A DNA stretch of 14,349 bases from Ruminococcaceae bacterium UBA5391 (lineage in GTDB: Bacteria; Bacillota; Clostridia; Oscillospirales; Acutalibacteraceae). A model generated the notes under the pieces. That model saw only the letters and a program-made list of their open reading frames with translations, did not search any database and was not told where the DNA came from. A program made the translations under genes and the position numbers. The stretch covers positions 9,098 to 23,446 of the forward strand of contig DHOL01000082.1 in the NCBI GenBank assembly GCA_002410755.1, read 5' to 3'. Shown piece by piece: positions 1 to 14,349 of this stretch (position 1 is the stretch's first letter; each line of letters opens with the position of its first letter).

Positions 1-2869
1 ATTTGTAAAGCTGGAATCCGGAAACAGCCGAATCCGCCGGATAGGACCAGGTCAGGCCGACCGAATGATCCGTAGTCAGGTCGCTCGACTGCGCGAAATT
101 GGACGGCAGGCTCGGCGGTGCAGTAACGTCCTTCACAAGATAGCTGACGACCGGGATCGTATTGTCCCCAATCGTGTAGGTATAGGTAAACAGCTTCCAG
201 TCAAATCCATAGCCGTAATTTTCCGCAGACTCGGGCAGATTTTTCACCTTTCCGGTATAGGTATTGCCGTTGGTGGAAACAGTTGCCGTTCCATGCCCGT
301 GGTCACCCCCGCCGACGATTCCAAACGTCCATTCGGCAAGGCCGGCCCCGTATTTGAAATCGATGGACTGGCTGGATTCGAAGCGGCTGCTGTCCTCATC
401 CTTTGTTTCGATTTCCTGCTCAATACTTGCATCCCCGTAACCGACACGCGCAAAATCTTCGTCTTCCCGGTTCTTAAAATCGGAACTATATACGGTGGCA
501 TTGCTGAAGCCTGATTTATCCGATGGATATGTAGAAGGTTCGCCGACTTTATGAGTCAAAACCTTCCCTTCAATTTTCGGTAATGCGGAGTAATCCGCGG
601 CGATCCTCTCATATTGTTCCAAAGAGAGTACGACTGTGGCTGCCTGATGAGGGATGTTGACCGACATGACCTGTTTGTCATATCCCGTCACCTTGCCGCT
701 GCTGTCGAGTTTCGGAATATAGCATTCATAATCGTAATATTCTATTGGGATAGAATAAAACGCTACGGAATCCTGTCCGGCTTCGGTTTCAAAAGAAATA
801 GAGGTTTCCATCTCGCTGGATTTGCTTGTTTCCCATGTAATTTCCAGTTCCGATTCATGTTCAAATTCAGAGCCGGCCACCCTCTTTCCCAGCACTTCAT
901 CTTCGTGCTCATACGCCGTGTACATTCCGCTGTGCACGGAAAATTCATTCGATGATTCATCACCTTTGCCCTGCGAGTTTTTAAGCTCGGTCAGTGAGCC
1001 TTCTCCCCCCAGGTCCTTGAAATACGGCGGCGATGCCAGCACTGCAAGCACCTTCGGATCGGAATAGATGACCCCGTGCTTGCCGCTGTACTGGTAATAG
1101 GAGGTATCCTCGTCGGTATTCAGCGCACAGAAGGATGATGCAAAATCAATATATGTATTCGTCAGGGTATTCACGCTGAAACTGTAGCTTTCTACCTTTC
1201 CGTTATCATTCTTCTGCGGCGTCAATACACCCTGGGCTTTGACATCAGCCGTTTCGGGACAATTGCCTGCTTCGTGCAGATAATTTAGCCGCACTTGGAC
1301 CGACTGTTTTGCGCAACCTGTCAGATCTGCGGAAACCACGCCGTATTCCGTATAATATCTCGAGTCGCCGGGCGAATCATTGCTGCGAATATTGAACGAA
1401 CTATTGTTGTCGAGTGCCGCCAGAATATTCAGCCCGTCATCCCCGTACTGGATAACCAGACTGTCCAGGTAGATATCCGAAGGTTTGCCCATGCCTTCCA
1501 TGTTTACAGCCGCTACATCGGCCTTCATGGTGGGCAGACTGTAGAAAACGTCGTTATGGTCGGCCATCGCCGGATAGACATAGGTTTCATTTCCAGAACT
1601 GTCTTTGGTCTTTAAAAAGAGATCAAAGTTTTTCGCGAGCGTTTGTGAAAACCCGGTGCCGTTATAATCGTAAACAGCCGCAAAACGGGTGTTGTCAACC
1701 CGGCAGTTCTTGATATTGTCATCCACAAGCTGGCCGCCGACAATCAGGTCATTCACGCCGTCGCCGTTGATGTCGCCATAAGCGACGGAAGCACGTACCA
1801 TCGCAGTCCCGTTATAAGTCAGATCCAGGCTCAGCGAGTTCACGGTTCCATCCGAATTCCGGAACATCCGGCCGCCTTTGCCTCCGCAGAGGATGATGTT
1901 CCGGCTGGGCGTATAGCCCTTAAGTCCAGTTGCAGGCTGATAAGCAGTGCCCCAGGTAATGGAAAGATCGTCGACGCCGTCCCTGTTTAAATCTCCGCTG
2001 CACAGCGATACCATGTTCGGCACGGATTCCTGATTCGCCCAGTTGTCTGCCAGAGAATAACTCCAGACTTCCGCCCATTTCGACGAATTGAGATAATAGG
2101 CGGATGCATTATCTGAAAAGGAACCGTCAATTTCCAACTTGTAAACAACCACCCGCGGATTTTTCTGCTCCGGTACATAAACGGCCACTTCATCCATACC
2201 GTCGCCGTCGAAGTCCCCGCAGGTAACCTGCAGATTGTTTTGCAGCAAATCCCAATATTTGTCATACTGCTCGTTGACAGTCGTACCGTCCGGATATTTC
2301 AGCCCGGTGTTTCCAATGGTTTGACTGGGGTTGATGAGCGTAATGGCCGATCCTTTCCGGTCATTCACCGGATCGGAAAAAAACAGATAAAGGCCGCCAT
2401 GCTCCGAATGTACGCCTCCCTTGCCTGACGCGACCGTGACAACCTGGCCTCGGTCTCCGTTTGAAGCTTTCACAAAGTTCCCCGCGAAAGCCGCCGATGC
2501 GCCGTAGGCACCCACAATGGCAACCTTTTTGTCATCGTGCATTGAGGAATTGGTATAAAAATCGTTCCAGGTTCCGTTCAGAGGCTTGTTGTGTCCATAA
2601 AGGATGGCAGACGGCATGAACTGCTCGAAAATTTCCAATACCGGATTTATCGTAACCGTGCTTCGCCCATAAGGGTTATCGGTACTGTTCAGATTCACAC
2701 CGTCAGGAATCTTCGTGGTATCGATGCCAAGTGCCTGCAGGGCATTCTCGTTACCGATATCCGTGCCGTTTGCCGAGGCGGCCGCAACCGGCAACTGAAA
2801 CGCCGGTAGCATCGTGGCCAGCATGCAGGATATCAGGCTAAGCGCAATAAATTTTCTGAGCTTTATCAA
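1..2869 (-). CDS. Large secreted FG-GAP/VCBS-repeat protein with C-terminal fibronectin type III domain (partial, C-terminus outside window)
   Basis: An open frame of 956 codons runs on the minus strand without a stop and leaves the window at base 1. The chosen start is TTG at 2869-2867, because GGAGGAG lies 7-9 bases upstream and this start gives a signal peptide: MIKLRK, then a hydrophobic run, then a VAAASA-type cleavage site near residue 30. The later in-frame ATGs would destroy that signal. Three Asp-rich loops, DFDGDGMDE (about residue 217), DLNRDGVDD (about 291) and DINGDGVND (about 364), fit calcium-binding FG-GAP/VCBS blades of a beta-propeller. The middle (about 630-880) has alternating polar/hydrophobic strands and no domain I can name. 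From about residue 917 a fibronectin type III domain begins (PPSLPSNF...VGLTWSYP...FQLYK). The protein is probably exported and wall- or matrix-associated. Its ligand is unknown. It is divergent from the plus-strand genes. Confidence 0.85.
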   Translation of the reverse strand, partial: MIKLRKFIALSLISCMLATMLPAFQLPVAAASANGTDIGNENALQALGIDTTKIPDGVNLNSTDNPYGRSTVTINPVLEIFEQFMPSAILYGHNKPLNGTWNDFYTNSSMHDDKKVAIVGAYGASAAFAGNFVKASNGDRGQVVTVASGKGGVHSEHGGLYLFFSDPVNDRKGSAITLINPSQTIGNTGLKYPDGTTVNEQYDKYWDLLQNNLQVTCGDFDGDGMDEVAVYVPEQKNPRVVVYKLEIDGSFSDNASAYYLNSSKWAEVWSYSLADNWANQESVPNMVSLCSGDLNRDGVDDLSITWGTAYQPATGLKGYTPSRNIILCGGKGGRMFRNSDGTVNSLSLDLTYNGTAMVRASVAYGDINGDGVNDLIVGGQLVDDNIKNCRVDNTRFAAVYDYNGTGFSQTLAKNFDLFLKTKDSSGNETYVYPAMADHNDVFYSLPTMKADVAAVNMEGMGKPSDIYLDSLVIQYGDDGLNILAALDNNSSFNIRSNDSPGDSRYYTEYGVVSADLTGCAKQSVQVRLNYLHEAGNCPETADVKAQGVLTPQKNDNGKVESYSFSVNTLTNTYIDFASSFCALNTDEDTSYYQYSGKHGVIYSDPKVLAVLASPPYFKDLGGEGSLTELKNSQGKGDESSNEFSVHSGMYTAYEHEDEVLGKRVAGSEFEHESELEITWETSKSSEMETSISFETEAGQDSVAFYSIPIEYYDYECYIPKLDSSGKVTGYDKQVMSVNIPHQAATVVLSLEQYERIAADYSALPKIEGKVLTHKVGEPSTYPSDKSGFSNATVYSSDFKNREDEDFARVGYGDASIEQEIETKDEDSSRFESSQSIDFKYGAGLAEWTFGIVGGGDHGHGTATVSTNGNTYTGKVKNLPESAENYGYGFDWKLFTYTYTIGDNTIPVVSYLVKDVTAPPSLPSNFAQSSDLTTDHSVGLTWSYPADSAVSGFQLYK

Positions 2870-3737: not shown

Positions 3738-4361
3738 ATGAAAAAAGAAAAAATGACTGTTCGGAAACTCCAGGCGAACGAAACCAAGAAGAAAATTTAC
3801 CAGTGCGCCGAAGAACTTTTTCGACAGCACGGTTTTGAAAATGTAACCGTAGATGACATCATGAATAAGGTAGGTATGTCTAAAGGAACGTTTTTCGTGC
3901 ATTACGCTTCCAGAGATGCTCTGCTTGCCGCATGCATTACGGAATTTGTTAATCGGGCAGATACGGATTATGAATCTTATCTGGAAACTTTTCCGGAACA
4001 GACGGCAACTTCGGATATTCTGATGGCCATGGTTGGGCGAATTGCCGACAATATTATAGAAAACGTCGGGTATGAACGGATTAAGATTGCCTACCGGATT
4101 CAGTTGGAAAAAACATTTGATACCGGTATGTTATTAAACCATGACCGGAAGATTTATAAAACATTTAGTTCTTTGGTCAATCGGGGAATGCAAACAGGTG
4201 AATTCCGAACGGACATACCCGCCGAAAGCATTGCCAATCATCTTGTCATGGCCATGCGGGGAGCCACCTATGAATGGTGCATCCGATATCCGGATTTCAA
4301 TTTAAAAAATCATCTGCTCCGGCATTTTCAAATACTTCTGTGCGGAATTAGAAAAAGATAG
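3738..4361 (+). CDS. TetR/AcrR-family transcriptional regulator
   Basis: The 207-residue protein has the usual TetR-family length. Residues about 16-62 form the N-terminal DNA-binding domain: KKIYQCAEELFRQHGFENVT (first helix and turn), then VDDIMNKVGMSKGTFFVHYA (helix-turn-helix with the family's GMSKGTFFxHY recognition motif). The remaining 140 residues are helical and would hold the ligand pocket and dimer surface, with no sequence hint of the ligand. The start at 3738 has AAGAAGGA about 9 bases upstream. A second Met at codon 6 is possible but has a poorer ribosome site. The gene stands alone between the peptidase remnant and the IS3 remnant, with its own promoter and a palindrome that may be its operator. 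No efflux pump or enzyme that it would obviously control is adjacent, so its target is unknown. Confidence 0.9.
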   Translation: MKKEKMTVRKLQANETKKKIYQCAEELFRQHGFENVTVDDIMNKVGMSKGTFFVHYASRDALLAACITEFVNRADTDYESYLETFPEQTATSDILMAMVGRIADNIIENVGYERIKIAYRIQLEKTFDTGMLLNHDRKIYKTFSSLVNRGMQTGEFRTDIPAESIANHLVMAMRGATYEWCIRYPDFNLKNHLLRHFQILLCGIRKR

Positions 4362-4808: not shown

Positions 4809-4841
4809 CTTAAGAGCATAACATCTTTGGGAGGGATTCCA

Positions 4842-5910
4842 TTGGACAGATATGCTATCTTAATGGCAGGAGGCGCAGGATTAAGGCTTTGGCCTTTTTC
4901 CAGAGAGAAAAAGCCCAAGCAATTTATCAGCGCAGATGGATGTCGGTGTATGATGCTCCGGACAATCGAGCGAATCAGCCCGGCCGTGCCCCTGAGTAAT
5001 TGCTTTGTCGTAACCAATCGGAATTTGGCGGCAATGACTGAAGACGCTCTGAAAGGCGTTATTCCCGCGTCCAATCTCATCGTAGAGCCTGAGCGGAAAA
5101 ATACAGCGGCCTGCATTGCGTATTCCACCTTCACCCTCAAAAGCAAAGGAAAGGACGGCGTCCTCTGTTTCTTTCCTGCGGACGGATATGTAAAAGATCA
5201 AACCGCATACCGTCTCGCAGTCAAACAGGCCTGTGAAGCGGCTGAAAAAACAGATGGGGCTCGTTATCATCGGCATTACGCCGAGCTATCCCGCCACCGG
5301 CTATGGATATATTCATGTAGACCTCGGGCAGGAAAATAAAATTTATCCCGTGATTCGGTTCGTCGAAAAGCCGGACCGTGAGACGGCGGAACAATTTCTG
5401 TCATCCGGCAATTACCTGTGGAACAGCGGAATTGTAGCGGGCAGACTTTCTGCGTTTGTTTCTCATATCCAATCGTTTCTTCCCAAACATTATGACGGAT
5501 TTTCCGCATTCAAAGACAATTTAGATGGACAAGACATTTTGCCATTTGTGAAAAAAGCGTATGCTGAAATTCCCGGTATTTCTTTTGACAAAGGCGTACT
5601 GGAAAAGAGCAATGATATCGTCGCAATTAAAGGCGATTTTGATTGGAATGATATCGGCAGTCTGGAAAGCCTTGCGGTTTCGCTCCCTCCGGACATCGAC
5701 GGGAACAAGGTTAAGGGTGATTTCTTCAGCGTTGATACAAAGGACTGCATCATATATGGCGATAAGGCATTGGTTACTGCCATAGGAATGAGAAACGTGG
5801 TGATTGCCATAACAGATGATGCGGTTCTGGTCTGTCCCCGAGACCGGGTTCAGGATGTTAAAATTCTTACGGAGCGGCTGAAAAACAGCCGTTATAAAAG
5901 CCTCACGTAG
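4842..5910 (+). pseudogene. manC: Mannose-1-phosphate guanylyltransferase (GDP-mannose pyrophosphorylase), frameshifted
   Basis: The enzyme makes GDP-mannose from mannose-1-phosphate and GTP. The N-terminal frame has the nucleotidyltransferase signature GGAGLRLWPFSREKKPKQF (residues 10-28), then VEPERKNTAA and FFPADGY. The second frame has TGYGYI, RFVEKPDRETAEQFL, NYLWNSGI and DFDWNDIGS, ending at 5910. Joined, they give about 355 residues, a full-length enzyme without the C-terminal phosphomannose isomerase domain. The frames meet near residue 139, where removing one base from the A6 (5245-5250) or G4 (5256-5259) run restores EKTDG-LVIIG. This may be a true mutation, a phase-variable site or a sequencing error. 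TTG at 4842 is preferred over the in-frame TTG at 4827, because GGGAGGG sits 6 bases upstream and the protein then begins MDRYAILMAGG. It is the first gene of an operon with the E1 pair and the SDR. Confidence 0.85.
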
Positions 5911-5969
5911 TGTTCCTGAACCATTTTTCTATGATTCAAATTCCGGAAAACTTTTTTAGGGGGCCTTTT

Positions 5970-6935
5970 ATGAAAAGCGAGAAGCTCATTGAGCTTTACC
6001 ATACGATGGTCAGAATCAGGATGGTTGAAGAGCGGATTGCCGCGGAATATCAATATGATGAAATCAAAACGCCGATTCACCTTTCCATTGGCCAGGAAGC
6101 CATTGCGGCGGGGGTTTGTATCCATCTGGAAAAAAGTGATTATCTTTTCGGAACGCATAGAAGCCACGCGCAGTATCTGGCCAAAGGCGGAGATCTGAAG
6201 AAAATGATCGCGGAACTATATTTGCGTAAAACAGGCTGTTCCCATGGACGGGGCGGGTCCATGCATCTCGCCGCGCCTGAGGTGGGAATTTTCGGTTCGT
6301 CGGCGATTGTGGGCGGTGACATCCCTCTGGGCACGGGAACAGCCCTTGCGTCCAAACTGAAAAAGGATGGCAGAGTGACCGCTGTATTTTTCGGGGACGG
6401 CGCGGTTGACGAGGGAACCTTCCACGAAAGTCTGGAATTTGCTGCACTGAAGAATCTGCCTGTTCTCTATGTCTGTGAAAACAACCATTATGCCATCAAT
6501 TCCCCAGAGTCCAAGCGGCACAGAAATTTGAACATTGCCCAATGGGTGGAAGGGTACGCTGTTCCAAGTTATAGAATAAACGGCAACGACGTCCTTGAAG
6601 TATCGGAATATGCGCGGGAAGCCATAGACGATTGCCGCAAAGGAAACGGGCCAGTTTTTCTGGAATGCGACACATACCGCTGGAAAGGGCATATCGGCAC
6701 TGTAGATGATGTCGGAAACGGCTACCGGCCAAAGGAAGAATATGACTACTGGCTGTCAAAGTGCCCAATCCAGTGGTACCGGCAATATCTGGAGTCAATC
6801 GGGTTATGGGATGATGCCAAGGAAAAGGCTCAACGGGAGAAAATTGCCGCCGAAATTCAGGAAGCATTTGAATTTGCACAAAAGTCGCCCAAACCTTCAC
6901 CGGAAGACCTAATGGATTGCGTTTATTCCAGTTGA
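5970..6935 (+). CDS. Thiamine-diphosphate-dependent E1 component, alpha subunit (PdhA/AcoA-like)
   Basis: The 321-residue protein has the length and motifs of alpha chains of 2-oxo acid dehydrogenase E1 enzymes: HRSHAQYLAKG, GRGGSMHL, and the thiamine-diphosphate/Mg motif starting at GDGAVDEG (residues 142-149) and ending at the NN pair (171-172). The ATG at 5970 is chosen because AGGGGG lies 8 bases upstream and the protein then starts MKSEKLIELYHTMVRIRM, as alpha chains do. A GTG at 5910 overlapping the manC stop would add 20 untypical residues. The beta chain follows after 19 bases. In a dehydrogenase complex this enzyme decarboxylates pyruvate or a related acid and passes the acyl group to lipoyl-E2. 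No E2 or E3 gene is nearby and the neighbours are sugar-nucleotide genes, so a two-carbon transfer to a sugar is a plausible alternative (inference). Confidence 0.88.
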   Translation: MKSEKLIELYHTMVRIRMVEERIAAEYQYDEIKTPIHLSIGQEAIAAGVCIHLEKSDYLFGTHRSHAQYLAKGGDLKKMIAELYLRKTGCSHGRGGSMHLAAPEVGIFGSSAIVGGDIPLGTGTALASKLKKDGRVTAVFFGDGAVDEGTFHESLEFAALKNLPVLYVCENNHYAINSPESKRHRNLNIAQWVEGYAVPSYRINGNDVLEVSEYAREAIDDCRKGNGPVFLECDTYRWKGHIGTVDDVGNGYRPKEEYDYWLSKCPIQWYRQYLESIGLWDDAKEKAQREKIAAEIQEAFEFAQKSPKPSPEDLMDCVYSS

Positions 6936-6954
6936 ACACAAGGGGGGTAAGATT

Positions 6955-7998
6955 ATGCCACGGACAACAATTCAGGCTGAAAAGCAGGAAAATCCTTTTG
7001 CAGAGGGGAAATCCGGCAAAGGCAGAGCAATATCCTACAAAGATGCCCTTTTTGAAGCAACGGATCAGGCTCTGGCAAGAGACCCAGGGGTATTTGTCAT
7101 GGGCGAAGGCGTGGACGACCCAACCGGCGTGTACGGCTCCATGAAAGGACTGAAAGAAAAATACGGTGCGGAAAGAGTATTTGACACGCCGATTGCGGAA
7201 AATTCCCTGACCGGCTTTGCAGCCGGCGCGGCGATGGCGGGCTTGCGCCCCATCCTAATCCACAGCCGCATGGACTTTATGATCCTGTCTCTGGATCAAC
7301 TGGTGAACCATGCCTGTAAATGGAGTTATATGTTCAACGGGCAGGTAAAGGTTCCTCTCGTCATCCGGACCATCAGTGCGCGGGGATGGGGAGCGGGTGC
7401 GCAGCATTCCCAGTGCATTCAGGGAATGCTCATGAGCGTGCCGGGCCTTAAAATTGCAGTACCGGCAACGCCGTACGACGCAAAGGGGCTTCTGATTTCA
7501 AGCATCATTGACAACAGTCCGGTTTTGTTCGTTGAGCACAGATGGCTTTACAAAACGATGGGAGACGTGCCCGAATCCCTGTATTCCATTCCGTTTGGGA
7601 AAGGCGTCGTCAGAAGGCCGGGGCGCGACGTTACGATTGTTGCCGTGTCCTATATGCAGGTTGAAGCGATGAAAGCCGCTGCAAAGCTGGAAGCTGAAGA
7701 TCATATCTCCGCGGAGGTCATCGACCTCAGAACAATCAAACCCATGGATGAAGAAATCGTGTTTCAATCACTCGCCAAAACAGGGCGGCTGATTGTCGCC
7801 GACACCGGCAATAAAACAGGCGGAGTAGATTCCGAAATATCGGCGGTTGTCGCAGAAAAAGCGTTTTCCCTTCTCAAAAAGCCGATTATCCGGATTGGCT
7901 GCCCAGATGCCCCGACACCGGCAAGCGACGTTTTGGAAAAAGCATATTATCCTGATTCCGAAGTAATTCGCCGAGAAGCCATCCGGCTGATGAAATGA
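6955..7998 (+). CDS. Thiamine-diphosphate-dependent E1 component, beta subunit (PdhB/AcoB/transketolase-like)
   Basis: The 347-residue protein matches E1 beta chains: ISYKDALFEATDQAL near the N-terminus, FDTPIAENSLTGFAAGAAMA with the conserved Glu that activates thiamine diphosphate, the active-site His in GAQHSQ, PGLKIAVPATPYDAKGLL, and a C-terminal transketolase-type domain with VIDLRTIKPMDEE. About 20 N-terminal residues precede the usual start of the family (QENPFAEGKSGKGR) and look disordered. ATG 6955 follows a GGGGGG ribosome site by about 6 bases. It would form an alpha2beta2 heterotetramer with the product of the preceding gene in the cytoplasm. All catalytic residues I can check are present, so the enzyme is probably active. 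Its acceptor is unknown. The SDR gene begins 13 bases after the stop, which indicates co-transcription. Confidence 0.88.
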   Translation: MPRTTIQAEKQENPFAEGKSGKGRAISYKDALFEATDQALARDPGVFVMGEGVDDPTGVYGSMKGLKEKYGAERVFDTPIAENSLTGFAAGAAMAGLRPILIHSRMDFMILSLDQLVNHACKWSYMFNGQVKVPLVIRTISARGWGAGAQHSQCIQGMLMSVPGLKIAVPATPYDAKGLLISSIIDNSPVLFVEHRWLYKTMGDVPESLYSIPFGKGVVRRPGRDVTIVAVSYMQVEAMKAAAKLEAEDHISAEVIDLRTIKPMDEEIVFQSLAKTGRLIVADTGNKTGGVDSEISAVVAEKAFSLLKKPIIRIGCPDAPTPASDVLEKAYYPDSEVIRREAIRLMK

Positions 7999-8011
7999 GG
8001 CGAAAAGGACC

Positions 8012-9070
8012 ATGGATAAAATCATTGCTGAAGACTGTCTCCAATATCTGCCGAAGATTGACCTGTCCCCCATGAAGGGGAAAACTGTACTGATTACAGG
8101 CGCCAACGGGATGATTGGGACGTACCTGATTACTCTTCTGCACATGGCCAACGTCAAGCAGGACGCAGGGATTCGCATTGCCGCCGTCAGCAAGCATCCC
8201 CCCTGCGAAAAGCTATCCGGCCTGTTTCAGAACAGCAGAGAAAAATATCTGTTCCGCGCCGCAGACCTTGCAGACTCCGCAACACTGGACATCCCATGGA
8301 AAACGGACTATATCATTCATGCGGCAACTTATGCGCAACCGGCAATCTTCATGAAAAACTATTCTGAAACAATCCGGCTGAATATCTTCGCGACTGAAAA
8401 TCTGCTGAAAAGGGCAAAAGCCGATGGTTCAAAATTTCTGTTTCTCAGCTCATCCGAAGTCTATGGGAATCCAAACCCGGCCAACATCCCAACCCGTGAG
8501 GATTTTCCCGGGCTCTGTTCCCCACTGAGTATCCGGTCAGTCTATGCGGAATCAAAAAGGATGGGCGAAACCCTTTGCTGTGCTTACCGGAAATTTGAAT
8601 CCGTCGACGCGAAAATTGCTAGGGTTTTCATGAGCTACGGCCCCGGGCTCACAACCCGTGACAAACGCGTTATGGGACAATTCCTGAAACAGGCGCTGCT
8701 CAATAAAAAGATTACCATGCTTGACGATGGGAAAAAAGTTCGGACTTTTTGCTATGTTGCAGACTGCGCCGCAATGCTTCTTTTTGTGTTGTTGTGGGGA
8801 AAAGACGTCGTTTACAATGTCGGGGCAGAAAACCGGATTACCATAAGGCAGCTTGCCGAAGAAATCTGCAGGCAAACAGGGAGTTCCCTGACTGTTGGAC
8901 GTCCGCGTCTCTCCTCGGAAAAAGTGGTGGAGGTTTCGCCGGAAATCGTTGAACCCGATCTAACAAAAATTCGTTCGGAATTTGATCTTCCTCCCTTTAT
9001 GCCGTTCCAAAAAGGACTGGCACGCACAATCGAATGGAACCGGCCCCTGCTGGAAAACAACCCCCGGTAA
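8012..9070 (+). CDS. Extended SDR, NAD-dependent nucleotide-sugar dehydratase/epimerase/decarboxylase family
   Basis: The 352-residue protein has the Rossmann dinucleotide-binding motif TGANGMIG (about residues 29-36), an SSSEVYGNP block, the catalytic YAESK (YxxxK), and the substrate-domain motifs RVFMSYGPGL and VRTFCYVADC. The SSSEVYG and RSVYAESKRMGETLC blocks recall UDP-glucuronate decarboxylase (TSEVYG, RSCYDEGKRVAETLC) more than dTDP-glucose 4,6-dehydratase, which has a DEVYG block. The substrate is not fixed by sequence. Given manC upstream, a GDP- or other NDP-linked sugar is likely. It could act before the E1 pair (making a keto sugar) or after it (reducing a branched product). ATG 8012 has AAAAGGA 5 bases upstream. 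This appears to be the last gene of the manC operon, since a 126-base gap with its own promoter candidate follows. Confidence 0.85.
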   Translation: MDKIIAEDCLQYLPKIDLSPMKGKTVLITGANGMIGTYLITLLHMANVKQDAGIRIAAVSKHPPCEKLSGLFQNSREKYLFRAADLADSATLDIPWKTDYIIHAATYAQPAIFMKNYSETIRLNIFATENLLKRAKADGSKFLFLSSSEVYGNPNPANIPTREDFPGLCSPLSIRSVYAESKRMGETLCCAYRKFESVDAKIARVFMSYGPGLTTRDKRVMGQFLKQALLNKKITMLDDGKKVRTFCYVADCAAMLLFVLLWGKDVVYNVGAENRITIRQLAEEICRQTGSSLTVGRPRLSSEKVVEVSPEIVEPDLTKIRSEFDLPPFMPFQKGLARTIEWNRPLLENNPR

Positions 9071-9196: not shown

Positions 9197-10315
9197 ATGC
9201 CGACTACAACGGTAAATATTTCAAATACAACTTTTGTCGCATCTGGGCAACCGAACAACAACATGTCTTCCTATTCGGTCATGTATGTAGGCACGAACCC
9301 ACAATTTCAGGACTGCATCGGTTTGATGCAGATTACACTTCCTTCACTTCCTGTGAATCAGGTTGACAGCGCATTCCTTCAACTGGCAGTCGTTGCAAAA
9401 AGCGGCGCCGCGTCGAGCCCGGTTGTCGTTAATCGGGTAGATGAAGCCTTCAGCACTTCTACAGTTACCTACAGCACACGTCCGTCTTTTACGCCTACCG
9501 CATCCACGATCAATGTCAGTACGTCTGATTTGTACACAATCGTGCAGATTGATGTAACTGCTCTGATAAGCAGCTGGCTGAACGGGACGGTGCCGAACAA
9601 CGGCCTTGCACTGACTAACTCGGACGGTTCCACCGTGGTTCACTTCGCCACGAACAATATTATCTACCAGCCGTATTTCCCAACGTTGACGTTGACCTAC
9701 TCCAGTTCTCCTGCAAGCAACACCGCAATCTGTTTCAGTTACGAGCAGCTTGCACATGTGATTACCCAACTGATACAGTTGTATCCGTCAACGGTCATGA
9801 CATTCTATACGACAGGGTTCAACGTCGTTGGAGTCACTGGAATTCCGATTGAGCTTTACGCCTCGCCGGACGCTAGTTACGGGACGCTCGCCGTCATAAC
9901 GGATGCCGGAGTGAATGGAGCCGTGCCTCTTAATCAGATCACGGCGATTGAGTTGCCAGCCGACGCAATTTACAACCAGTCAATCACGTATTTGCCCACT
10001 CCGCAGTTCCCTGCTGGTTGTGACAAAAACCTGATTACCTCATGGCATGACTATCTGCCTGTGTCGACCGCCGCGACGGTTTACACGGGGGCTCTGATTT
10101 CGGAGACCGGCGTGGTTTACAGAAATGAATATGGCCTTCTCGTCATGGCAGATAATGGCACCGGCCTGCACCCGGTCTTTCTGCCCGTTGTTAATATTAC
10201 GGCCGTCACGACGACTGCTCCTGCGGCAGCCCCGGGCAAAACTAAGGATGTATCAAAATCCGGCCTGATCATTCAAGGGAAAAGCGAAAATTACCCGCTG
10301 AATCATCAGCAGTAA
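9197..10315 (+). CDS. DNRLRE-domain protein, Ser/Thr-rich, no signal peptide
   Basis: The 372-residue protein starts MPTTTVNISNTTFVASGQ and has no signal peptide or membrane segment. Residues about 1-170 fit the DNRLRE beta-sandwich fold: paired strands with FLQLAVVAKSG, the VDEAFSTSTVTYSTRPSF signature, VQIDVTALISSWLNG and FPTLTLTYSS. Residues about 172-345 form a second region of unknown type, beginning with CFSYEQLAHVITQLIQLYP and containing two similar strand sets (YGTLAVITDAG... and YGLLVMADNGTG...). The last 30 residues are polar and probably disordered. Ser, Thr and Ala are strikingly frequent, which gives many possible O-glycosylation sites. It is transcribed alone, between its own promoter candidate and a strong terminator, and lies between sugar-nucleotide and glycosyltransferase genes. 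A structural surface protein, perhaps of the spore, is inferred. The ribosome site AGGGTG is 8 bases before ATG 9197. Confidence 0.75.
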   Translation: MPTTTVNISNTTFVASGQPNNNMSSYSVMYVGTNPQFQDCIGLMQITLPSLPVNQVDSAFLQLAVVAKSGAASSPVVVNRVDEAFSTSTVTYSTRPSFTPTASTINVSTSDLYTIVQIDVTALISSWLNGTVPNNGLALTNSDGSTVVHFATNNIIYQPYFPTLTLTYSSSPASNTAICFSYEQLAHVITQLIQLYPSTVMTFYTTGFNVVGVTGIPIELYASPDASYGTLAVITDAGVNGAVPLNQITAIELPADAIYNQSITYLPTPQFPAGCDKNLITSWHDYLPVSTAATVYTGALISETGVVYRNEYGLLVMADNGTGLHPVFLPVVNITAVTTTAPAAAPGKTKDVSKSGLIIQGKSENYPLNHQQ

Positions 10316-10418: not shown

Positions 10419-10454
10419 ATATGAATATTTTATTTTGTGGGGTGATTGCAGCGT

Positions 10455-11597
10455 ATGGCGAAAGATAGGTTCCTCCTGATTAAAGCCTGGAGCTATATAT
10501 TATGGGCTGATATAGAGCATGTGCTGAGCCAACTGTTGATTGCGGAATTAACAGACCGCATTCCCGTCGTCTACTGGCCCACTTATTGCCTGCACAATGG
10601 TTTTATCCATACAAACGGCTTTGAACTGTATTTTGAGCCGGTTTCCGATTTCACCATTTTTGATGTGGCAAACCCCGACTATACCTTTTATCCGCCCGTA
10701 TGGGATGAGAACAACCTGCTGGCCGACGATCCCTCAAGGGAAACATGGGTGTATCGGAATATCGGGGATATGCTGACCTGCAACGCCAACGTCCTTGTCG
10801 GAGACGTCTACTTCGACATTTACAATCTGATTCCCTTCATCGGCAAGGATAAAGCGGAGTATGGCATGACGGTGCGGCAGATTTACCGGTATCTATTCAA
10901 AAAGTATATCCACTTAAAGTCCGACATCAAAATTGAAGTGGAAGGCTTTTATAACTCTTGGCTGCGTGATTACGCACCGGTGCTGGCCGTTCATGTTTTA
11001 AGGCCAGATAAGGACCAGGCCATCCTGAAAAGCAACGGCAGGAAAAAATATCAATACCACTCAAAAAGTTATGGAAAGAGTTCAAAAAGCCCAATCGAGA
11101 AAAAAGTTAAAATAAGCCGGCTGCCATGGAGACGGAAAACCATGCTGCCAAACGAAGCATACTACAACGAAATCCGACAGATTATTGAGAAATACGACAT
11201 CAGGAAGATTTTTCTTTTAACAAACAGTGTAGAGGTGTTGAAAGAATATCAGCAAAAATATGGTTCCATGGTCGTTGCAACGGATTGCAAAAGGCTGACG
11301 GCCGACGATGACGCCTCTTTCTTGGAAAGCCCCATGGTAAAAAGGCGCCGTGGCGTCGAAGTGCTGAAAGACACCTACCTTGCCGCAAAGTGCGAATTCT
11401 TTATCGGCAACGACTTTTCCAGCCTGTCTCAGACTGTCGTTAATATGAAGGAATGGGACAGCAGTAACGTGAAGCTGCTTTACTGGCAGGTAGGAAAACT
11501 GAAATATCCGATTAACCAGAAAATCATCACTTCCCGGAAAGGGCGGAGTATTTTCAAAAGGATTGCCGCTTCAATCAGGAAGCATTTTGCAAAATAA
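10455..11597 (+). CDS. Glycosyltransferase-like protein 1, NodZ/FUT8/O-fucosyltransferase-type fold, degenerate donor motif
   Basis: The 380-residue protein is the first of three tandem paralogues. ATG 10455 is chosen over the upstream TTG (10446) because MAKDRFLLIKAW aligns with the starts of the other two and GGGGTG lies 10 bases upstream, whereas it would touch the TTG. Shared blocks are RFLLIK, LTDRIPVVYW, FELYFEPVSD and a C-terminal KDTYLAAKCEFFIGN...SS. In fucosyltransferases of the NodZ/FUT8/POFUT type, an HxRxxDK motif binds GDP-fucose. Here the matching place (residue 180) reads HVLRPDK: the first Arg is Leu, while Asp-Lys are kept. A Lys/Arg-rich insertion of about 36 residues (SNGRKKYQYHSKSYGKSSKS and onward) follows, which the paralogues lack. 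It may be an altered or non-catalytic partner. No signal peptide is seen, so it is cytoplasmic. Confidence 0.65.
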   Translation: MAKDRFLLIKAWSYILWADIEHVLSQLLIAELTDRIPVVYWPTYCLHNGFIHTNGFELYFEPVSDFTIFDVANPDYTFYPPVWDENNLLADDPSRETWVYRNIGDMLTCNANVLVGDVYFDIYNLIPFIGKDKAEYGMTVRQIYRYLFKKYIHLKSDIKIEVEGFYNSWLRDYAPVLAVHVLRPDKDQAILKSNGRKKYQYHSKSYGKSSKSPIEKKVKISRLPWRRKTMLPNEAYYNEIRQIIEKYDIRKIFLLTNSVEVLKEYQQKYGSMVVATDCKRLTADDDASFLESPMVKRRRGVEVLKDTYLAAKCEFFIGNDFSSLSQTVVNMKEWDSSNVKLLYWQVGKLKYPINQKIITSRKGRSIFKRIAASIRKHFAK

Positions 11598-11626
11598 ACC
11601 GAGTCTTTTACGGAGATGAAATCATT

Positions 11627-12688
11627 ATGCCAAAGGAGCGCTTTCTGTTAATTAAAAGCTGGGGCTGCGGATTCTGGTCTGATGTGGACCATGTTATGGG
11701 CCAGCTTCTTGTCGCTGAACTGACAAACCGGATACCGGTTGTCTACTGGGGGCCAAACAGCCTGTATGCAAAATCCTTTCAGACAAACGCGTTTGAACTT
11801 TATTTTGAGCCAATCTCGAAATACACCATTCAGGACCTGGCCTGGCCGGGGTATACGTTTTACCCATCTGTCTGGAATGCGCGGAATATCATGATTGAAG
11901 ACCTCGACAAAATTGCCTGGACACAGCGCAATCTGGGCGACATGATGAGCAGCGACGCAAGCGTGGTCGTCAGCGACGTGCACTATTTTGTTAAGCCGAT
12001 GATTGACTATATTCCGGAAGGCCACTGGGCTTACGGAATGACACCGCACCAAATCTACCGCTGTCTGTTCGACAAATATCTGAAACTGAAACCGGATATC
12101 AAGCAGGAGATACAGAACTTTTACAGCGAAAATCTTGAGGGGAAAGGGCCGCTTCTGGGAGTCCATATCAGGGGCGGAGACAAGATCCGCGAAGTTGAAA
12201 ACCTTGCGCGGCTGAACCAAAGATATTATAAGGAAATCGACCGGTACATTCAGCGCTACGGCATCCGAAAGATTCTTCTCCTGACCGACTGCAAAGATAT
12301 TATAAAAAAGTTCAAACAGCTGTACGGCCCCATGCTGGTATTCACCGACTGTAGAAGGAGCGAACTCAACGACACCCGCAACGCCGCGCACCTGAAACCT
12401 TACCGCGAAAGAAGACGGAAAGGCATCGAAGTCATCAAAGACACATACCTCGCATCAAAATGCGATTTCTTTATCGGTAACGGCTATTCCAACGTCTCCT
12501 ATGCAGTAAAACGCCTCAAGGACTGGCCGGAAGACCATATCGTCCTGTTCTACAGGGACCTGAAAAAGGAGAAGAGATTGGCAAAGAAAAGAACCGCAAA
12601 AGCCGGAAAGCTCAGGAATGCGGAAACGATAAACCACCGGTCCGGGTACCCGGAATTTTATGGAGGTGTAAACACCTATGCCGACTAA
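11627..12688 (+). CDS. Glycosyltransferase-like protein 2, NodZ/FUT8/O-fucosyltransferase-type, intact HxRxxDK motif
   Basis: The 353-residue paralogue starts MPKERFLLIKSW after a CGGAGATG ribosome site and begins 29 bases after the first copy stops. It carries LTNRIPVVYWG, FELYFEPISKYT, and at residue 180 the motif HIRGGDK. This fits the HxRxxDK donor-phosphate motif of GDP-fucose-dependent transferases (H-V-R-R-T-D-K in FUT8). The C-terminal KDTYLASKCDFFIGNGYSNV supplies the usual second conserved region. The tail (about residues 318-353) is Lys/Arg-rich. GDP-linked donors fit with manC in the neighbouring operon. Acceptor and exact sugar are unknown. Of the three copies, this one looks most likely to be catalytically complete. 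Its last 11 bases overlap the third copy, so the two are translationally coupled. Confidence 0.7.
   Translation: MPKERFLLIKSWGCGFWSDVDHVMGQLLVAELTNRIPVVYWGPNSLYAKSFQTNAFELYFEPISKYTIQDLAWPGYTFYPSVWNARNIMIEDLDKIAWTQRNLGDMMSSDASVVVSDVHYFVKPMIDYIPEGHWAYGMTPHQIYRCLFDKYLKLKPDIKQEIQNFYSENLEGKGPLLGVHIRGGDKIREVENLARLNQRYYKEIDRYIQRYGIRKILLLTDCKDIIKKFKQLYGPMLVFTDCRRSELNDTRNAAHLKPYRERRRKGIEVIKDTYLASKCDFFIGNGYSNVSYAVKRLKDWPEDHIVLFYRDLKKEKRLAKKRTAKAGKLRNAETINHRSGYPEFYGGVNTYAD
12664..12677 (+). promoter_or_regulatory. Hairpin enclosing the ribosome binding site of glycosyltransferase 3
   Basis: AGGTG-TAAA-CACCT forms a 5-bp stem with a 4-base loop, ending at the base before ATG 12678 and burying most of the GGAGGTG ribosome site (12662-12668). 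It lies inside the last codons of the previous gene, so ribosomes finishing that gene would open it. This suggests strict translational coupling. Confidence 0.45.
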
Positions 12689-13637
12689 CCGTTTCCTTTT
12701 CATAAAGGCCATCGGCCACAGCATATGGGCGGATGTCGACCATGTCATATGTCAGGTTTTTGCCGCCGAACTTACGAACCGGGTTCCCGTCGTTTACTGG
12801 GGAATGGAAAGCATGTACAGCGCCTCGATGAATGACAATTCGTTCAAGCTGTTTTTTGAGCCGGTGTCGGACTATTCCGTGGAAGACGTTGTGCAGCCGG
12901 AATTTACCTATTTTCCGCCGACGTGGGAATATGGAAACGTTCTGGCGGAAGATACCGACAAGCTGAAAATGGAAAACCGCAGCCTGAAAGAGCTGATGGA
13001 AAGCAATGCCAACGTCGTCGTCAGCGACGTCTACTATCCAATCCAGGCAATGCTGCCATGGGTTAAAAGTGATCACTGGGCCTATGGGAAAACGCCGATT
13101 CAAATCTACCGGCATCTTTTCAGCCGTTACCTGAAGCTTAAGCCGGAAACAAAAAAAGAAATCCAGAAGTATATCAATACCCATCCTGATTTTCGGGATG
13201 AAAGGCCAATCATCGGCGTCCACGTACGGGAAAAAGCCATTGTAAATGAAGTAGCCCAGCTTTATGACCTGAACGAATTTTACAAGCCGCGGATTTGGGA
13301 CTTCATTGTCCGATATAATGCCCGACACATTTTTTTAATCACGGATTCCAGAAAAATTTTCAGGCAGTACAAAAAGCTGTACGATAAAAACGGTCTGCTC
13401 ATGTACACGGACAGCAAAAAAGAGCTGTTTCGGCCGCGCATCATGACCTGCCTCCTGGATTACCCGAACAAACGCCACAAAGGCGTAGAACTGAAAAAGG
13501 ATACCATCGAAATTATCAAAGACACCTACCTTGCCGCGCAGTGTGACTTTTTTATTGGCAATGGGTATTCCAATCTGTCGAATGCGGTTATGCGGCTGAA
13601 GGATTGGCCCGAGACCAACATCAAACTTCTGTATTGA
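12678..13637 (+). CDS. Glycosyltransferase-like protein 3, NodZ/FUT8/O-fucosyltransferase-type, degenerate donor motif
   Basis: The 319-residue third paralogue is the shortest. It starts MPTNRFLFIKAIGHSIWADV and keeps LTNRVPVVYWG, FKLFFEPVSDYSVED, YGKTPIQIYRHLFSRYLKLK and the C-terminal KDTYLAAQCDFFIGNGYSNL, so the fold should be the same. At residue 182 the donor motif reads HVREKAI. The essential-type Arg is kept, but the Asp and Lys of HxRxxDK are Ala and Ile. The surrounding stretch aligns without gaps to copy 2, so this is substitution rather than misalignment. It lacks the basic C-terminal tail of the other two and ends right after the conserved core (IKLLY). It may use a different donor or act as a partner subunit. 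Its start overlaps the end of copy 2 by 11 bases. Confidence 0.65.
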   Translation: MPTNRFLFIKAIGHSIWADVDHVICQVFAAELTNRVPVVYWGMESMYSASMNDNSFKLFFEPVSDYSVEDVVQPEFTYFPPTWEYGNVLAEDTDKLKMENRSLKELMESNANVVVSDVYYPIQAMLPWVKSDHWAYGKTPIQIYRHLFSRYLKLKPETKKEIQKYINTHPDFRDERPIIGVHVREKAIVNEVAQLYDLNEFYKPRIWDFIVRYNARHIFLITDSRKIFRQYKKLYDKNGLLMYTDSKKELFRPRIMTCLLDYPNKRHKGVELKKDTIEIIKDTYLAAQCDFFIGNGYSNLSNAVMRLKDWPETNIKLLY

Positions 13638-13681: not shown

Positions 13682-14349
13682 TTGGATCATAAGGAAAAGA
13701 AATATCTTGATTATCTTAAGGCAAACTGTCCCGGGATTCCGTTACAGGACGTCACGTTTAATTTTCTGGACGGGACGCACAGCGACATCGTAATTGCAAA
13801 CGGAAGCACCGCATTCCGGTTTTCAAAATACGACTGGGCTGTCTGTTATTTGACCAACGCAGTCAGGGCTGTCCGCCTTGCCAAAAAATACGTTGAACTC
13901 CCACTGCCGGATATTATCCCCCTCGAGCCTGGAGTTGTAAAATACGGTTTTATCCCGGGCAAACCGCTGTCGCGGAATAAGCTCCTCCTCAGTAAAAGCC
14001 TGGAACAGGATTATCTGGCAAAACAGCTTGGAACATTTCTCGTTCAGCTGCATTCCGTCCCGCTCGAAGAAGCCAAAAACGCCCGGCTGGAAAGCCGCTT
14101 TGCAGACAGGGATCGCTCATACTGGAAATCCAGGTACCATGAATTGGAAAGGAAGCTCTTCCCCTACTGCGACAATTACACCCGGGAATCAATTCAGCAG
14201 CTTTTCCGGGTTCCCTTTGAAAAGAAGAACTTTTTCGATTATCCCCCATGCCTGGTTCACGCGGACTTAGTTCCACGCCATATTCTCTGTAAAGAAAAAT
14301 CGCTGAGAATCAACGGTATCACCGGATTCGGTTCCTGCGGCATTGGAGA
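13682..14349 (+). CDS. Aminoglycoside-phosphotransferase-like (APH/choline-kinase fold) protein, partial
   Basis: An open frame of 222 codons runs off the right edge. The start TTG at 13682 is supported by AAAGAAGG 7 bases upstream. No in-frame ATG lies between the preceding stop and this point. The N-terminal lobe contains NFLDGTHSDIVIANGSTAFRF (glycine-poor nucleotide loop region). Then come LGTFLVQLHSVPL and the catalytic loop HADLVPRHIL (from residue 193), with the family's HxD but His in place of the usual Asn. The metal-binding DFG-type block reads GITGFGSCGIGD, so its Asp is Gly (residue 215). Such kinases phosphorylate small hydroxyl substrates including sugars. CotS-type spore-coat proteins share the fold. 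It follows the third glycosyltransferase by 44 bases in the same operon. It could modify a sugar or glycan, or be a non-catalytic relative. Confidence 0.7.
   Translation, partial: MDHKEKKYLDYLKANCPGIPLQDVTFNFLDGTHSDIVIANGSTAFRFSKYDWAVCYLTNAVRAVRLAKKYVELPLPDIIPLEPGVVKYGFIPGKPLSRNKLLLSKSLEQDYLAKQLGTFLVQLHSVPLEEAKNARLESRFADRDRSYWKSRYHELERKLFPYCDNYTRESIQQLFRVPFEKKNFFDYPPCLVHADLVPRHILCKEKSLRINGITGFGSCGIG

What the first reader, a model, noticed from the sequence alone, without database searches (positions are those of the whole stretch)
4842..9070. E1 alpha/beta pair inside a GDP-sugar operon: possible two-carbon-branched sugar pathway
Seen: manC, E1-alpha, E1-beta and an extended SDR are packed in one operon, with no lipoyl-E2 or E3 gene anywhere in the window. 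Known: PDH-E1-like pairs are reported in antibiotic clusters (AviB1/AviB2 in avilamycin, and homologues for aldgarose) where they are linked to adding a pyruvate-derived two-carbon branch to a keto sugar. Inference: these genes may make a branched-chain GDP-sugar from GDP-mannose for use in surface glycosylation. That chemistry is not, to my knowledge, described for such a glycosylation locus.
Basis: partly seen in the sequence, partly recalled or inferred. Interest (0 to 1): 0.72.

Follow-up and report, generated by a model that had tools for sequence, protein, structure and literature searches.

The report
Orphan E1 pair, likely sugar-branching enzyme
A gene pair that looks like part of pyruvate dehydrogenase sits, without its usual partners, in a conserved sugar-building gene set of anaerobic bacteria and groups with antibiotic-cluster enzymes thought to add a two-carbon branch to sugars, so these bacteria may make an undescribed branched sugar.

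Summary
manC (frame-broken here), E1-alpha, E1-beta and an extended SDR are adjacent and co-directional; no E2, lipoyl or full-length E3 gene was found in the 71%-complete genome. A contig that overlaps the window's last 24 bases carries gmd and fcl, so GDP-4-keto-6-deoxymannose should be available. All 18 cassette loci compared (16 distinct genomes) keep manC-E1a-E1b-SDR; 16 of 18 keep three NodZ/FUT8-like glycosyltransferases; 11 of 16 genomes lack any E2. In an E1a+E1b tree (support 100/100) the pair falls with pairs from polysaccharide-like loci and a paulomycin-type Streptomyces pair, not with E2-linked dehydrogenases; clade-specific residues agree. [quoted passage not shown] the SDR may finish it and the transferases use it. 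That chemistry is inferred. As far as I know, even for the antibiotic pairs it rests on genetics. New variant of a known kind.

The parts
4827..5910 (+). manC-like mannose-1-phosphate guanylyltransferase, split over two frames (4827-5339 and 5233-5910)
   Evidence: TIGR01479 and PF00483 on both pieces, PF22640 on the second; one 366-aa frame in L007
5970..6935 (+). E1-alpha (ThDP-binding half) of the orphan E1 pair, 321 aa; listed ORF begins at 5910
   Evidence: PF00676 262 bits; PDH_E1_alph_y 324.9 bits, below its 393.85 cut-off; GDG-X26-NN present
6955..7998 (+). E1-beta of the orphan E1 pair, 347 aa
   Evidence: PF02779, PF02780; PRK09212 307.9 bits, below its 321 cut-off
8012..9070 (+). 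extended SDR (NAD-dependent epimerase/dehydratase type), closest solved structures UDP-glucuronate decarboxylase (UXS1)
   Evidence: PF01370; 2b69/4gll E 2.7e-37; S-S-S-E, Y-x3-K and R244 invariant in 8 aligned rows
9197..10315 (+). DNRLRE/CBM96-domain protein, no signal peptide seen by eye; inside the cassette here, at its far end in L008 and L010, not found in the other 16 loci
   Evidence: NF033679 and PF24517
10446..11597 (+). GT1, member of the NodZ/FUT8-like glycosyltransferase set (no own Pfam or NCBIfam hit)
   Evidence: alignment A2, 44% to GT2
11627..12688 (+). GT2, NodZ/FUT8-like glycosyltransferase
   Evidence: FUT8_N_cat 33.6 bits, cut-off 27.6; AlphaFold2 model pLDDT 82.8, best Foldseek hits NodZ with GDP-fucose (3six, E 6.1e-13) and FUT8
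12678..13637 (+). GT3, NodZ/FUT8-like glycosyltransferase
   Evidence: FUT8_N_cat 23.3 bits, below its 27.6 cut-off; 49% to GT2
13682..14347 (+). APH-fold gene, runs off the contig end; role unknown
   Evidence: PF01636 39.1 bits; contig C61 begins with the window's last 24 bases, continues this frame and then holds gmd and fcl

Best explanation
The E1 pair is an E2-independent, thiamine-diphosphate-dependent carboligase of sugar biosynthesis, of the AviB1/AviB2-Pau11/Pau12 type. It decarboxylates pyruvate and adds the resulting two-carbon (acetyl) unit to the keto carbon of a sugar. The likeliest acceptor is GDP-4-keto-6-deoxy-D-mannose, made by ManC and Gmd of the same operon. The SDR then reduces the acetyl branch or otherwise finishes the sugar, and the NodZ/FUT8-like transferases attach the product, with L-fucose from Fcl, to a glycan or protein. 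Shown: gene content, conservation, absence of E2, phylogenetic placement, fold of one transferase. Inferred: two-carbon donor, acceptor, SDR step, glycan.
For: Tree of concatenated E1a+E1b: window, 7 cassette loci, 11 further loci with no E2 in the stretch held and 4 Streptomyces pairs form one side of a 100/100 branch (46 rows chosen from the 69). One of the 4, L120, lies in a paulomycin-type cluster: EF-G, 325-aa E1a, 345-aa E1b, NDP-hexose 2,3-dehydratase, 3,5-epimerase, 426-aa transferase, resembling the pau10-pau16 list of PMC4425429 (passages read). A second, L119, has RmlA- and RmlB-type genes beside it. Clade residues: E1a P35 and R183 in 23 of 23 and 0 of 46 others; E1b R105 23 of 23 and 0 of 46; E1b H103 and W145 each 22 of 23 and 0 of 46. 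ThDP and catalytic residues are kept (E1b E82, H151; E1a H241, GDG-X26-NN). 11 of 16 distinct cassette genomes have no E2, whereas of 9 genomes sampled from the next score tier all 9 have one and in 8 it lies within about 6 kb of the E1 hit. gmd (84%) and fcl (80%) in the same genome on the adjoining contig. PMC10338323 (abstract and passages): other acetyl-branched sugars are hexose-derived, the keto sugar being a 4,6-dehydratase product, which is what Gmd makes.
Against: No biochemistry. Plain identity does not separate the classes: the window is 43-45% to L120 and 44-45% to the E2-linked L051. Two of the four Streptomyces rows (L034, L075) showed polyketide/peptide-type neighbours and no sugar gene in the stretch I read. 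Five of 16 distinct cassette genomes do have an E2 elsewhere (one only a 139-bit hit in a 2392-aa frame), and so do the genomes of clade rows L030, L050, L034 and L075. L011 has manC-E1-SDR but no transferases after the SDR and no gmd/fcl in the stretch held. Gmd and Fcl may serve only GDP-fucose. In the proposal of PMC4425429 the branch is added after glycosyl transfer, not on the nucleotide sugar.
Confidence: 0.6

Rival explanations
1. Same two-carbon chemistry, but the acceptor is not GDP-4-keto-6-deoxymannose: the SDR itself makes a 4-keto sugar (as EvdS6 does for eurekanate), or the branch is added after the sugar is on the glycan.
For: The SDR follows E1b in 18 of 18 loci, while gmd/fcl is farther away and on the opposite strand in 5 of the 6 loci that show it. 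Its nearest solved relatives are UDP-glucuronate decarboxylases. EvdS6 makes the 4-keto pentose thought to be the acceptor in everninomicin (PMC10338323). Post-transfer branching is the proposal of PMC4425429 for avilamycin and paulomycin.
Against: manC stands before E1a in every locus compared, and gmd is a 4,6-dehydratase, the usual source of such acceptors.
Confidence: 0.22
2. The pair does other ThDP chemistry for the glycan: ketol transfer from a sugar phosphate, or glycolyl transfer as proposed for QncN/QncL-NapB/NapD (recalled, no call), giving a chain-extended or acylated sugar.
For: E1-beta also matches transketolase and DXS models weakly; E1b positions 103, 105, 143, 145 differ from dehydrogenases, so donor specificity could differ too.
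Against: Grouping with the paulomycin-type pair, for which transfer of a pyruvate-derived C2 branch is genetically supported (PMC4425429, PMC4802897). The genome has what read by eye as separate split transketolases. I noticed no acyl carrier protein in the cassette.
Confidence: 0.13
3. An ordinary dehydrogenase E1 that works with an E2/E3 encoded elsewhere, or as a free ketoacid oxidoreductase, and is near sugar genes by accident.
For: Five of 16 distinct cassette genomes encode an E2 elsewhere. NCBIfam's best names are PDH E1 subunits.
Against: 11 of 16 genomes lack E2; conserved synteny 18 of 18; separate side of the tree at 100/100; scores below the curated PDH cut-offs; E1b 308 is K/R in 21 of 23 clade rows but D in 24 of 30 E2-near rows, at a position I recall as an E2-binding contact in PDH E1-beta.
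Confidence: 0.05

Closest known systems
Pau11/Pau12 (Plm8/Plm9), paulomycin, and AviB1/AviB2, avilamycin
   Same: E1 alpha/beta pair in a sugar-nucleotide gene cluster; a paulomycin-type pair (L120) lies on the same side of the tree, has no E2 in its locus and shares the clade residues.
   Different: Antibiotic clusters with dTDP/UDP sugars in Actinomycetota; here GDP-mannose genes, NodZ/FUT8-like transferases, Clostridia. AviB sequences not compared. Pau7, the ketoreductase there, is listed as an aldo-keto reductase, not an SDR (PMC4425429).
YerE, yersiniose (branched 3,6-dideoxyhexose of O-antigens)
   Same: Proposed outcome: C2 unit from pyruvate on C4 of a 4-keto-6-deoxy sugar for a cell-surface glycan.
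   Different: YerE is a single ThDP flavoprotein (PMC4425429, PMC4753412 passages), of the acetolactate-synthase type (PMC10338323), not an E1 pair; its sugar is CDP-linked (recalled).
EvdS6 + EvdU5/EvdS3, everninomicin eurekanate
   Same: UXS-type SDR together with a PDH-like heterodimer.
   Different: UDP-pentose route; the heterodimer is untested there too (PMC10338323).
Pyruvate/acetoin dehydrogenase E1
   Same: Domains, ThDP motif, catalytic histidines.
   Different: E2-linked as a rule; other side of the tree; lacks the clade residues.
NodZ and FUT8 fucosyltransferases (GT23)
   Same: Fold of GT2; GT2 passes the FUT8_N_cat cut-off; GDP-sugar donor expected.
   Different: 15-21% identity in the NodZ and FUT8 structural matches listed; NodZ and O-FucT models below cut-off for GT2, FUT8 below cut-off for GT3, no hit for GT1; donor and acceptor unknown.

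Membership tests
AviB/Pau-type two-carbon-branching E1 pairs | E1 alpha and beta as a separate adjacent pair with no E2/E3 in the cluster | tested here: met
AviB/Pau-type two-carbon-branching E1 pairs | Phylogenetic grouping with antibiotic-sugar E1 pairs | tested here: met
   grouped with a paulomycin-type pair identified by context (L120) at 100/100; AviB1/AviB2 themselves not in the set, root not inferred
AviB/Pau-type two-carbon-branching E1 pairs | Genes for a 4-keto sugar nucleotide alongside | tested here: met
   gmd on the adjoining contig and in 6 of 7 relatives long enough to show it
AviB/Pau-type two-carbon-branching E1 pairs | Transfer of a pyruvate-derived C2 unit to a keto sugar | not testable with these tools
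   needs an assay
Pyruvate/acetoin dehydrogenase E1 | Genetic link to E2 | tested here: not met
   none in the locus or own genome; 11 of 16 distinct cassette genomes have none
Pyruvate/acetoin dehydrogenase E1 | Scores above curated PDH E1 cut-offs | tested here: not met
   324.9 against 393.85; 307.9 against 321; the L120 pair also falls below both
Pyruvate/acetoin dehydrogenase E1 | Placement among E2-linked E1s | tested here: not met
NodZ/FUT8 glycosyltransferases | GT23 fold | tested here: met
   model of GT2 only, pLDDT 82.8; NodZ and FUT8 are the top Foldseek hits
NodZ/FUT8 glycosyltransferases | GDP-fucose as donor | not testable with these tools
   needs an assay

The most novel reading that the evidence does not exclude
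One whole side of the E1 tree, generally named pyruvate dehydrogenase E1, is a family of sugar carboligases, here seen in seven phyla; in Clostridia it makes an undescribed GDP-linked C2-branched 6-deoxy-octose, attached in the cytoplasm (possibly in the spore mother cell) by NodZ/FUT8-like transferases.
Probability: 0.38. Interest if true: 0.78.

Novelty: new variant of a known kind. Interest (0 to 1): 0.64.

Why it matters
If right, a branched-sugar chemistry known from some antibiotics and O-antigens is a wider tool for bacterial glycans, in anaerobes with GDP-sugars, and many genes now named pyruvate dehydrogenase E1 are misnamed. The cassette is intact in cultured Ruminiclostridium whose genomes show no E2, so the E1-type branching reaction, inferred from genetics and as far as I know not reconstituted, could be tested directly with a small set of soluble enzymes starting from GDP-mannose.

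Tried and rejected
Literature searches for E1 pairs in O-antigen or GDP-sugar loci and for a spore or DNRLRE link gave nothing on this cassette in the listings seen; the Arcobacter paper (passages) was irrelevant. Papers opened for the E1-E2 contact residue gave the roles of H128-beta and H271-alpha (PMC2663715) but not the E1-beta residue that binds E2, so the K308 argument rests on recall plus the alignment. E1b 308 is an imperfect marker: on the other side of the tree 3 K and 1 R of 16 no-E2-near rows and 2 K of 30 E2-near rows. A spore role was considered: Spo0A is present in 19 of 19 genomes searched (the window's own and 18 cassette genomes, 17 distinct in all), but I ran no matched Clostridia without the cassette, so this is compatibility only. 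Left unused: one structure job, two fold searches, two protein searches; RNA tools were not used. The SDR could be typed from sequence but not its substrate. Rows dropped: of the loci, repeats of the same locus, fragments and many E2-near or Streptomyces rows were left out of the 69-row tree, and 23 of its 46 other-side rows were left out of the 46-row tree. L205-L213 were fetched but used only through the E2 search of their genomes.
Full report
WHAT IS THERE. The window is the right end of contig C79 of a 1.64-Mb, 71%-complete genome. On the plus strand it carries a TetR-type regulator (3738-4361), a manC-like gene in two frames (4827-5339, 5233-5910), E1-alpha (321 aa from 5970; the listed ORF starts at 5910), E1-beta (6955-7998), an extended SDR (8012-9070), a DNRLRE/CBM96 protein (9197-10315), three related glycosyltransferases (10446-13637) and an APH-fold gene cut by the contig end. 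The genome has no E2 catalytic domain and no lipoyl/biotinyl domain; the same searches rang in 10 and in 14 of 14 reference genomes. An E3 protein found only weak partial matches (best 32.6 bits). No E2 or E3 match was found in the window, the rest of its contig, contig C61 or 18 related loci. At 71% completeness the genome-wide absence alone is not decisive. The other three Transket_pyr hits of the genome read by eye as two split transketolases and DXS, so this is the only E1 pair found in it.

THE OPERON CONTINUES. gmd (84% to relative L007) and fcl (80%) lie on a 3549-base contig, C61. Its reverse complement starts with the last 24 bases of the window and continues the APH-like frame before gmd and fcl. 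L007 has the same order APH-gmd-fcl uninterrupted; its gmd passes the curated TIGR01472 cut-off (563.6 against 415) and its fcl comes close (464.2 against 500). So the cell should make GDP-mannose, GDP-4-keto-6-deoxymannose and GDP-L-fucose from genes next to the E1 pair.

CONSERVATION. A class-level search of 391 genomes found 12 (the window's own included) at E 3.7e-184 or better, and then nothing until 1.2e-104; the 8 same-family and 9 same-order genomes listed had no hit at the 1e-60 limit. I compared window genes with L007-L013 and with the 11 other loci of that top tier. manC-E1a-E1b-SDR is in this order and orientation in 18 of 18. GT1-GT2-GT3 follow the SDR in 16 of 18 (L013 ends after the start of GT1; L011 has none in the stretch held). 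A further transferase lies between manC and E1a in 15 of 18 (not L007, L199, L203). gmd and fcl are in 6 of the 7 loci that reach far enough (not L011). Chance neighbourhood is excluded.

NO E2. PF00198 searches: 6 of the 7 genomes of L007-L013 have none and 7 of the 11 others have none; counted once each, 11 of 16. The five with a hit are L008's genome, G658, G529, G485 and G395 (the last a 139-bit hit in a 2392-aa frame). In G658, G485 and G395 it is on another contig than the pair, in G529 about 0.8 Mb away, and L008 has none in its 21 kb. As contrast, 9 genomes from the next score tier all have an E2, and in 8 of 9 it lies within about 6 kb of the E1 hit.

PHYLOGENY. E1a and E1b were taken from the loci held and labelled by whether an E2 lies in the locus. 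A 69-row tree and a 46-row tree with bootstrap give one branch with full support (SH-aLRT 100; then 100/100, in all of 200 bootstrap trees). On one side: the window, the 7 cassette loci, Omnitrophota L014-L017, L018, L020, L030, L038, L050, L055, L074 and Streptomyces L034, L075, L119, L120, none with E2 in the stretch held (short for L055 and L074). On the other: 46 rows, 30 with E2 in the locus. In one search the 23 other-side rows were chosen from those 46. The trees are unrooted. Genome-wide E2 is absent for L014-L018, L020 and L038 and present for L030, L050, L034 and L075; L055 and L074 were not searched.

WHY THE STREPTOMYCES ROWS MATTER. L120 has, around the pair, EF-G (706 aa), an NDP-hexose 2,3-dehydratase, a dTDP-sugar 3,5-epimerase and an EryCIII-like transferase of 426 aa; its E1a and E1b are 325 and 345 aa. 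PMC4425429 (passages) lists pau10 EF-G 709 aa, pau11 325 aa, pau12 345 aa, pau15 426 aa, pau16 2,3-dehydratase, names Pau11/Pau12 as AviB1/AviB2 homologues and reports a pau11 mutant. PMC4802897 (abstract and passages) calls Plm8/Plm9 the system that attaches the pyruvate-derived two-carbon chain. L119 has an NTP transferase of RmlA type and a dTDP-glucose 4,6-dehydratase over its cut-off. L034 and L075 show polyketide or peptide-synthetase neighbours by eye and no sugar gene in the part I read, a result against a simple reading.

RESIDUES. 23 clade rows against 46 others: E1a P35 23/23 against 0/46, R183 23/23 against 0/46, T34 19/23 (C in 4) against G in 43/46; E1b R105 23/23 against 0/46, H103 22/23 against 0/46, W145 22/23 against 0/46, R196 23/23 against 5/46. 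Kept are H151, which aligns with the catalytic H128-beta of the Geobacillus enzyme (roles of H128-beta and H271-alpha: PMC2663715 passages; alignment), E82, E1a H241 and GDG-X26-NN. So the ThDP machinery is intact and a set of positions is changed in common with the antibiotic-type pairs. E1b 308 is K/R in 21/23 and D in 24 of 30 E2-near rows; I recall this position as an E2-binding contact but found no paper here that says so, and exceptions exist. Plain identity is uninformative (43-45% to L120, 44-45% to the E2-linked L051).

OTHER GENES. The SDR is closest to UDP-glucuronate decarboxylase structures (E 2.7e-37), with S-S-S-E, Y-x3-K and R244 invariant in 8 aligned rows; this gives type, not substrate. 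EvdS6, an SDR of that kind, makes the 4-keto pentose thought to be branched by a PDH-like heterodimer in everninomicin (PMC10338323), a suggestive parallel. GT2 was modelled (pLDDT 82.8, pTM 0.78) and matches NodZ with GDP-fucose first (3six, E 6.1e-13, TM 0.57/0.67) and FUT8 next. I noticed no export signal in the transferases by eye.

RELATED LOCI. Most other members of the same side of the tree sit among genes that read by eye as polysaccharide biosynthesis. L014, L015, L016 and L018 have kinases whose best NCBIfam match is HddA (136-165 bits, cut-off 600); L014 and L015 have nucleotidyltransferases nearest to mannose-1-phosphate guanylyltransferase and HddC (below cut-off); L014 and L018 have Fcl-like genes (422 and 416 bits, cut-off 500). 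GDP-sugars therefore seem to recur with this E1 type, though at sub-cut-off scores.

MECHANISM. Most likely: pyruvate + ThDP gives the enamine on E1ab; it attacks the C4 ketone of a keto sugar, most simply GDP-4-keto-6-deoxymannose; the SDR reduces or otherwise completes; the transferases use the GDP-octose and GDP-fucose. Steps up to GDP-4-keto-6-deoxymannose follow from established families (ManC, Gmd). The two-carbon step rests on phylogeny, residues and absence of E2. The acceptor and SDR step are inference. Whether the target is surface, spore or cytoplasmic protein is open; Spo0A occurs in all 17 distinct genomes searched, without a matched control.

NOVELTY. In the searches made (listings, top rows only) I saw no paper describing this cassette or an E1 pair in a GDP-sugar locus; the library holds only open-licence papers. 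I file it as a new variant of a known kind.

Noticed in passing
window 4827-5910: manC is in two overlapping frames; sequencing error or real frameshift cannot be told from one assembly.
   Followed up: partly
L005 309-3297 (own contig C79, left of the window), minus strand: Genes that look by eye like CapF/CapE-type UDP-sugar enzymes and an undecaprenyl-phosphate sugar transferase, i.e. a polysaccharide cluster on the same contig.
   Followed up: no
window 2-2869 and L005 5025-9200, minus strand: A very long secreted-looking repeat protein, partly masked by a run of N.
   Followed up: no
L012, L195, L196, L200, L202 between SDR and GT1; L011 after SDR: A gene read by eye as subtilisin-like (S8) lies inside or at the end of the cassette in several loci.
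   Followed up: no
L007 19456-19983 and the right part of L008, L009, L010, L012, L194, L197; left of manC in L198 and L201: A DivIVA-domain gene accompanies the cassette (PF05103 in L007).
   Followed up: partly
L034, L075 (Streptomyces): Close relatives of the paulomycin-type E1 pair in polyketide/peptide-type clusters without sugar genes seen in the stretch read.
   Followed up: partly
L122, L123, L125, L128 and other Streptomyces hits: E1-alpha hits in open frames of 664-715 aa, with E1-beta next to them, which suggests alpha-beta fusions; not checked. No E2 match in these stretches.
   Followed up: no
window 13682-14347: APH-fold gene scores 42.6 bits against the APH(2'')-Ie/IVa model whose cut-off is 600; its position suggests a glycan-related kinase, not resistance.
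   Followed up: partly
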